Origin: Planctomycetota bacterium
GTDB lineage: Bacteria > Planctomycetota > Planctomycetia > Gemmatales > Gemmataceae
Length of the DNA: 64,000 nucleotides
Direction of reading: 5' to 3'
Assembly (NCBI GenBank): GCA_003669555.1
Contig: QWOS01000111.1
Location: 1-64,000 of the forward strand
Positions 62,780-64,000 of the stretch are shown in pieces. The first letter of the stretch is position 1. Every line of letters starts with the position of its first letter. Both the position numbers and the translations under genes were made by a program. Below the pieces are notes generated by a model. It worked only from the letters and a program-made list of their open reading frames with translations. It did no database searches and was not told the origin of the DNA.

Positions 62780-64000
62780 TTATGGTTTTTTTGCTGGTTC
62801 ATCCTGGAAAACATTGTCTTTTTCCAGCGGTAACTGGAAGGCATCGGCCACACGGGTCATGAAGTGGCAACGACCAGACCACCAGACCACCTGCCACATC
62901 CCTTCGCGTCCAAACTCTTTTTCCAGTCCCTCGAGGTCGGCTTGCGAAACCTTCCAGGGTTCCAGGGCTTGTTTACGGGCGAAGCGTAGTGCCATTTGGT
63001 GCCCCACAGGCAGGCTCGACCAGTTGCCGCTGGCCAGCATCTTTTCCCGATCGAAAATTTCGTTTTCTTTCAGCCCCGCGACCGCGAGGCCCATTTCGCA
63101 ATGACCCATTCAATAAAAGCAGTTGAGTGAACGCGTCACCACCCAGAACATGTCCGCTGAGAGCATCGGGTCGAGCCTGGCGCCCTCGGGCTTGGCCCCT
63201 TCCCGTTTGCGGCGGCCATCGACACGGAACTGGTCCACGCAATCGAACCAGGCATCGGCGATCTCGGCCTGATGACCAAAAGCCACCAACCCCCAACCCA
63301 CCTTGGGCCAGCGGCGTACCCAACTGTCTATTTCCAGGTGTGGCTGCACTTCTTTCCAGCCCGGAATGCGAATACGGGCCACCCGTTTACGCTGGTTTTC
63401 CAGGCTTTCCTGCAATTGGGCCAGCGATTGGCCTGTCCAGGCGGGATCATCCGGCCCCAGGTTTTTCCCTGGTTCCTTGCCGGGCTTTGTCACTGCGGCT
63501 GGTGGCTTGGGTGGCCCGGTGCTTTTGGTTGGCTGAGTGCGTTTGATACCGAAGGCCACCAGCACAGGCGCGGGAACTCCTTCGGATTCGATGGGGGGAC
63601 GCAGTGTGAGCAGCAGCCGATCCTGGAAGCTGCCATGAGCCACCAGCAGTACCATCGCCACCACTTGCGATTCGCTGTAAGTGGCCAGCAGTTCCTTCAC
63701 CTGGGCGTCGGTGGTCCGGGAGGCTTCCAAAGCCAACTGGCGGGCGAAATCCCAAACCAGTTTTTCCTGGGGTGGCAGGGTGGCGATATCCGGCGCACCG
63801 GCTCCGGTATCTTCGCGGAGATCGGTCAGGGCGATGGCCCTGCCATAATCGCTGTGGTTGGCATCAGCTACCGCCAGGCGAATCAGGGCCCGCAAACGCG
63901 GGTGCAGCGAGGGGGCGGTGCGGGTGAGCCCATCCAGCCGCAGCATGGCCGCGGTGGCATGGGGCATCGGGCCCGCCAGCAGGCGGGCCCAGGCCGGCAA
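62780..64000 (-). CDS. candidate selenoprotein: two-domain carboxymuconolactone decarboxylase/AhpD-like protein read through UGA at 63110..63112 (5' end outside window)
   Basis: Two ORFs in the same frame separated only by TGA: ...MFWVVTRSLNCFY-[TGA]-MGHCEMGLAVAGL...; gives an AhpD-like CxxU motif; downstream sequence completes the CMD-like fold (FARK...FMTRVADAFQLPLE). Confidence 0.72.
63073..63090 (-). promoter_or_regulatory. candidate bacterial SECIS hairpin
   Basis: Minus-strand RNA GCCUCGC-GGUC-GCGGGGC starting 19 nt after the UGA; GGUC apical loop. Confidence 0.6.

What the first reader, a model, noticed from the sequence alone, without database searches (positions are those of the whole stretch)
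62780..64000. Candidate selenoprotein: AhpD/CMD-like reading frame interrupted by one in-frame UGA
Seen directly: the minus-strand ORFs 64000..63110 and 63109..62780 are in the same frame and separated only by TGA, reading T-R-S-L-N-C-F-Y-[UGA]-M-G-H-C-E-M-G-L-A-V-A-G-L. The second ORF has no Shine-Dalgarno-like sequence before its ATG and looks like the back half of a CMD/AhpD domain. Neither ORF alone gives a complete second domain. Reading UGA as Sec gives C-F-Y-U, matching the redox CxxC of AhpD-like proteins with the second Cys replaced. AhpD-like proteins are known among bacterial selenoprotein families. No frameshift or other in-frame stop is present in the visible part.
Basis: partly seen in the sequence, partly recalled or inferred. 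Interest (0 to 1): 0.88.

Follow-up and report, generated by a model that had tools for sequence, protein, structure and literature searches.

The report
UGA-encoded selenocysteine AhpD-like selenoprotein
A planctomycete gene that looks broken by a stop codon almost certainly encodes one protein with the rare amino acid selenocysteine in its redox centre; this is well supported but belongs to an already known kind of bacterial selenoprotein.

Summary
The gene runs from contig position 64138 (138 bases past the window edge) to 62780 on the minus strand: 452 codons with one in-frame UGA (63112..63110) in the motif CFYU. In 78 homologues from the same bacterial family this column is UGA (52) or Cys (26), nothing else. 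A GGUC-loop hairpin (CUCGC-GGUC-GCGGG) follows the UGA at fixed spacing in 50 of 52 UGA genes and 0 of 26 Cys genes, with covarying pairs and near-frozen synonymous codons: a bacterial SECIS. Coding constraint after the UGA is stronger than before it. The draft genome (60% complete) has selD, itself with an active-site UGA, but no selA, selB or tRNA-Sec; its three same-genus relatives have selB-selA, one also tRNA-Sec(UCA). UGA and Cys forms separate by one change on the tree. The protein has two AhpD-fold lobes (sestrin-like); the first is degenerate, the second carries Sec. The upstream gene is a second CFYU selenoprotein. AhpD-like CxxU selenoproteins are known, so this is a new member of a known kind, below current NCBIfam cut-offs. 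Substrate unknown; most likely a peroxide/thiol oxidoreductase.

The parts
62780..64000 (-). Selenoprotein gene, part inside the window (codons 47-452 plus stop TAA at 62782..62780); the start ATG lies at contig position 64138, outside the window
   Evidence: homologues
63110..63112 (-). In-frame UGA, read as selenocysteine (residue 343 of 452; motif C-F-Y-U)
   Evidence: UGA or Cys only at this column in 78 of 78 family homologues
63072..63091 (-). Bacterial SECIS hairpin GGC-CUCGC-GGUC-GCGGG-GCU; apical loop GGUC at 63083..63080, 26 nt after the UGA
   Evidence: 50/52 UGA genes vs 0/26 Cys genes; covariation; fold
62780..63445 (-). C-terminal AhpD-fold lobe carrying the C-F-Y-U motif (P0001 residues about 186-400)
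   Evidence: AlphaFold model pLDDT 89, pTM 0.91; Foldseek and profile matches to AhpD-like structures
63600..63994 (-). N-terminal AhpD-fold lobe with degenerate active site (S-D-Y-G where CxYC would be; P0001 residues about 3-134)

Best explanation
The gene encodes one 452-residue selenoprotein. UGA at codon 343 is decoded as selenocysteine by the SelB/tRNA-Sec system, directed by the SECIS hairpin just downstream. The product has two AhpD-fold lobes: the first has lost its redox residues, the second has the active site C-F-Y-U-M-G-H, in which Sec replaces the second Cys of the AhpD CxYC motif. It most likely works as a thiol/selenol oxidoreductase of the AhpD type, reducing organic hydroperoxides or an oxidised partner protein through a selenenyl-sulfide cycle between Cys340 and Sec343, probably outside the cytoplasmic membrane and together with the apparently co-transcribed upstream CFYU selenoprotein. 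Sec decoding is strongly supported by comparative evidence; the chemistry, location and partnership are inferred (I would put the AhpD-type redox role at about 0.65).
For: Cys/UGA exclusivity: 41 UGA and 8 Cys for this gene, 11 UGA and 18 Cys for the upstream gene, none other; in the public-genome scan 92 Cys and 3 UGA. SECIS: 50/52 vs 0/26; pair 24-39 forms in 53 of 55 UGA genes with six standard pair types, against a shuffled mean of 34.5 and a maximum of 45 in 20,000 shuffles; a double compensatory synonymous change in L022. Codons L-A-V-A have top-codon shares 0.97-1.0 against at most 0.79 at the other conserved degenerate codons. Ala352 in 44/44 Sec forms, Glu/Asp in 84/86 Cys forms. dN/dS after the UGA 0.047-0.077 against 0.119-0.247 before it in same-genus pairs. 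One UGA/Cys change on the tree. selD with UGA; selB-selA and tRNA-Sec in the genus. AhpD fold twice, nearest full-length match Sestrin2. The hairpin meets the published bSECIS constraints (PMC13188914).
Against: selA, selB and tRNA-Sec were not found in this draft assembly (59.7% complete). His lies 3 residues after Sec, against 4 after the second Cys in characterised AhpD-like proteins, and the proton-relay Glu 12 residues before the first Cys is Ala here, so peroxidase activity cannot be assumed. No expression or selenium-labelling data.
Confidence: 0.95

Rival explanations
1. Decaying pseudogene or sequencing error: the TGA is a mutation or a misread TGC/TGT/TGG.
For: It is a single stop in one draft metagenome-assembled genome.
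Against: The same UGA is present in 41 of 49 homologues across many genera; post-UGA dN/dS is 0.05-0.08; a conserved hairpin follows it.
Confidence: 0.01
2. Two polypeptides: translation ends at UGA and restarts at the adjacent AUG (63109).
For: In the window gene the UGA is directly followed by ATG, a possible termination-reinitiation site.
Against: In 15 of 52 UGA genes (4 of this gene, all 11 of the upstream gene) the next codon is CTN, not ATG. The two parts form one AhpD lobe and are one open frame in Cys forms.
Confidence: 0.01
3. UGA is recoded to something other than Sec (genetic-code change to Trp or Gly, or near-cognate read-through).
For: Read-through without Sec cannot be formally excluded by sequence alone, and selB is not in this draft.
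Against: 22 of 37 long ORFs in the window end in TGA, so UGA is an ordinary stop. The column alternates only with Cys. A SECIS hairpin is present, and selD and genus-level sel genes exist.
Confidence: 0.02

Closest known systems
NF041238 AhpD_rel_CFYUT (alkylhydroperoxidase-related (seleno)protein; listed in PMC13188914 as a CxxU family first seen in the Sargasso Sea)
   Same: CFYU motif, AhpD-like region, Sec at the second position of CxxC
   Different: The window protein scores 21.8 bits against a cut-off of 175 and aligns only over the last third
TIGR01926 peroxidase-related AhpD-like proteins, a family in which CxxU selenoproteins are already listed (PMC13188914)
   Same: AhpD-like fold and CxYC-type active site
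   Different: 27.1 bits for this protein and 67.5 for the upstream one, cut-off 81.8; two lobes instead of one; His spacing shorter by one
Sestrin2 (human)
   Same: Two tandem AhpD-fold lobes, only one catalytically competent; best full-length structural matches (TM 0.51-0.54)
   Different: In Sestrin2 the first lobe is active and its second Cys is Leu128 (PMC4674687); here the second lobe is active and the second Cys is Sec. About 12% identity, no evidence of shared function
Debrominase Bmp8 (PDB 6OHI/6OHJ)
   Same: AhpD-like; profile match to the Sec lobe, E=7.7e-7
   Different: Single lobe, Cys-based; shared substrate not shown

Membership tests
Bacterial selenoproteins (SECIS-directed) | In-frame UGA aligned with Cys in homologues | tested here: met
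   78 of 78 Cys or UGA
Bacterial selenoproteins (SECIS-directed) | bSECIS: 3-9 nt apical loop, 4-16 bp upper stem, G in the first two loop positions, 16-37 nt from the UGA (PMC13188914) | tested here: met
   GGUC loop, 8 bp stem, 26 nt spacing; conserved and covarying
Bacterial selenoproteins (SECIS-directed) | selA, selB, tRNA-Sec and selD in the organism | tested here: inconclusive
   selD with UGA present; the other three not in the 60% complete draft; selB and selA in all three same-genus genomes, tRNA-Sec(tca) in G079
Bacterial selenoproteins (SECIS-directed) | Selenium in the protein | not testable with these tools
   needs 75Se labelling or mass spectrometry
AhpD/CMD superfamily | All-helical AhpD fold | tested here: met
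   confident model; Foldseek to 6k40, 2prr, 2gmy and others, and Sestrin2; profile hits
AhpD/CMD superfamily | Pfam PF02627 above the gathering score | tested here: not met
   17.0 bits against 23 for the window protein; a homologue, L020, reaches 30.9
AhpD catalytic proton relay (Glu, Cys, His/Tyr, Cys, His; PMC3141380) | Glu at -12 from the first Cys, CxYC, His at +4 from the second Cys | tested here: not met
   CxYU present, His at +3, Glu replaced by Ala in this protein
NF041238 AhpD_rel_CFYUT | score at or above 175 bits | tested here: not met
   21.8 bits; homologues 25.8-36.8
TIGR01926 peroxid_rel | score at or above 81.8 bits | tested here: not met
   27.1 bits

The most novel reading that the evidence does not exclude
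The Gemmataceae Sec-AhpD proteins form a deiodinase-like reductive system. In related genomes the same protein is fused behind an EF-hand/deiodinase-family domain, in some with Sec at both active sites, and the Sec lobe resembles debrominase Bmp8. The pair may use two selenols to reduce halogenated or peroxidised substrates outside the cytoplasm.
Probability: 0.1. Interest if true: 0.75.

Novelty: new member of a known kind. Interest (0 to 1): 0.5.

Why it matters
Standard gene calling splits this gene into two ORFs at the UGA, and the same should hold for its many Gemmataceae relatives. The family gives an unusually clean case of SECIS evolution: one Cys/Sec switch on the tree, a hairpin frozen at synonymous sites, and an amino acid (Ala352) apparently dictated by the RNA structure. 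Apart from one study (PMC4807772), planctomycete selenoproteomes are little described in the papers found here, and a homologue with Cys in a lineage lacking all sel genes (Zavarzinella formosa type) gives a natural control.

Tried and rejected
RF01852 hits in the own genome looked like tRNA-Sec but are all below the cut-off, and ARAGORN reads them as ordinary tRNAs such as Leu, Trp, Ser, Gly and Tyr. TIGR00475 hits in the own genome are elongation-factor-type GTPases (best one EF-Tu-like) and a CysN-type protein, not SelB. Pseudogene, reinitiation and code reassignment were rejected (see rivals). Rfam gave no match in the region. The single-sequence fold z-score of the hairpin is modest (-1.7), so the SECIS claim rests on comparison, not on energy. 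The public-genome scan used the Cys form of the peptide and is biased towards Cys forms, so UGA/Cys proportions outside the family are not estimates. Three alignment calls failed on stops or frameshifts in draft loci before one worked. A literature search for Bmp8 with deiodinase found nothing in the held library.

Full report
Observation. The minus strand has two ORFs, 64000..63110 and 63109..62780, in one frame and separated only by TGA at 63112..63110. The window cuts the gene: the contig continues, and the gene starts at ATG 64138, giving 452 codons with Sec at 343. Its ATG overlaps the stop of the upstream gene (ATGA), so the two are likely translationally coupled.

The genome. The window lies in a 3.43 Mb draft of 135 contigs, 59.69% complete. 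Some proteins of its family-mates are identical to those of named Gemmataceae (Fimbriiglobus, Zavarzinella formosa), so the host is taken to be a Gemmataceae planctomycete. TGA is the commonest stop of long ORFs in the window, 22 of 37.

The column. Searching 95 genomes of the family gave homologues in 44. At codon 343 there are 41 UGA and 8 Cys among 49 homologues read in detail, and for the paralogous upstream gene 11 UGA and 18 Cys among 29; nothing else. In a scan of public genomes the column is Cys in 92 and UGA in 3 matches, plus one off-register alignment; all 3 UGA cases carry CTCGCGGTCGCGGGC. That scan used a peptide with Cys and so favours Cys forms; a few loci overlap the family set.

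SECIS. After the UGA, 50 of 52 genes have five inner pairs and a GGUC loop; 0 of 26 Cys genes do. The two exceptions (L112, L114) have a GGUCU hairpin 9 nt further on. On 18 sequences all 108 cells pair, against 35-58% when the partner is slid by 1-3 bases; the outer pair shows GC, CG, AU, UA, UG and GU, and L022 has a double compensatory synonymous change. Across 55 UGA genes this outer pair holds in 53, above all of 20,000 shuffles. Codons for Leu-Ala-Val-Ala are near-fixed (0.97-1.0) while the other conserved degenerate codons are at most 0.79. Residue 352 is Ala in 44 of 44 Sec forms and Glu/Asp in 84 of 86 Cys forms: the likely reason is that the hairpin needs GCG there (inference). Loop, stem and 26-nt spacing fit the bSECIS model in PMC13188914. 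The GGUC loop is the one of the E. coli fdhF SECIS (own knowledge).

Selection. In same-genus pairs dN/dS is 0.047-0.077 after the UGA and 0.119-0.247 before it; synonymous sites are near saturation in two of the three pairs.

Machinery. selD is present with one UGA, in C-A-G-U-A-G-K, three residues before the active-site Lys (position of the catalytic Cys from own knowledge). selA, selB and tRNA-Sec were not found in this draft. The three same-genus genomes have selB and selA on one contig close together, and the 93%-complete one has tRNA-SeC with anticodon tca. Across the family selB, selA and selD pass their cut-offs in 81, 85 and 83 of 95 genomes. G094, 100% complete, has no selA match, no selB or selD over the cut-off and no 94-nt tRNA-Sec, and both its homologues have Cys (this gene there is L034, the upstream type L120); its protein is identical to that of Zavarzinella formosa. 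The missing genes here are therefore most simply explained by the incomplete assembly.

Evolution. On a tree of 128 proteins the Sec and Cys forms are separated by one change (branch support 84), against about 35 for shuffled labels. The root is not fixed, so direction is not shown.

Structure and mechanism. The model (pLDDT 89, pTM 0.91) has two AhpD-fold lobes. The best full-length matches are Sestrin2 structures, then single-lobe AhpD and peroxidase-related proteins. The first lobe has lost its cysteines (S-D-Y-G here); the second has C-F-Y-U-M-G-H, with C340, Y342, the Sec/Cys and H346 invariant in all 130 sequences. In AhpD the two cysteines form a disulfide after reaction with hydroperoxide, with Glu, His/Tyr and His as proton relay. 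Here His is one residue nearer and Glu is Ala; a selenol, ionised at neutral pH, would need less help (inference). I therefore propose a selenenyl-sulfide cycle between C340 and U343. Signal-peptide-like N-termini in homologues L023, L036 and L040 (by eye) suggest export; in the window protein it is weaker.

Context. The upstream gene (contig 65448..64136) is a second selenoprotein, CFYU-LGH, with the same hairpin. In the four genomes of the genus, a UGA plus this hairpin sequence inside long frames on both sides and matching known homologues occurs only in these two genes; one other long-frame hit (L189) was not pursued. In some relatives the downstream type is fused behind an EF-hand and deiodinase-family domain (NF038285 507.8 bits, PF00837 103.5 bits), and in G039, G040, G043 and G093 the deiodinase active site also holds an in-frame UGA.

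Comparison and verdict. AhpD-like CxxU selenoproteins are known (PMC2398784, PMC1794560, PMC13188914). This protein fails the cut-offs of the closest models, and the passages read of the paper on planctomycete selenium use (PMC4807772) do not mention it. It is a new member of a known kind, with high confidence that UGA means Sec and moderate confidence in the redox role.

Noticed in passing
contig C66 65448..64136, minus strand, just beyond the window (L008, L093): The upstream gene is a second AhpD-like selenoprotein with an in-frame UGA (CFYU-LGHQEHKLAVAG, codon at contig 65082..65080) and the same GGUC hairpin; homologues are UGA (11) or Cys (18).
   Followed up: yes
L020, L021, L029, L043 (G039, G040, G043, G093): Apparent double-Sec fusion: deiodinase-family domain (behind EF-hands where read, L020) with FGSFT-U-GP(Y/F)R, followed by the CFYU AhpD-like part. 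A SECIS at the deiodinase site was not clearly identified.
   Followed up: partly
L015 (G000 contig C61 44228-45160, minus): selD of this genome has an active-site UGA (CAGU) followed by a CGCA-GGUU-type hairpin.
   Followed up: partly
L112, L114 (G069, G071): Upstream-type UGA genes without the usual hairpin; a GGUCU hairpin lies 9 nt further downstream, perhaps a relocated SECIS.
   Followed up: partly
residue 347 (four after Sec): A third Cys is invariant in Cys forms (86/86) but present in only 10 of 44 Sec forms, suggesting a different resolving residue in the two forms.
   Followed up: no
short (about 200 aa) matches in many family genomes: Many small AhpD-like matches with one or two in-frame UGAs, so the family's AhpD-type selenoproteome is probably larger.
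   Followed up: no
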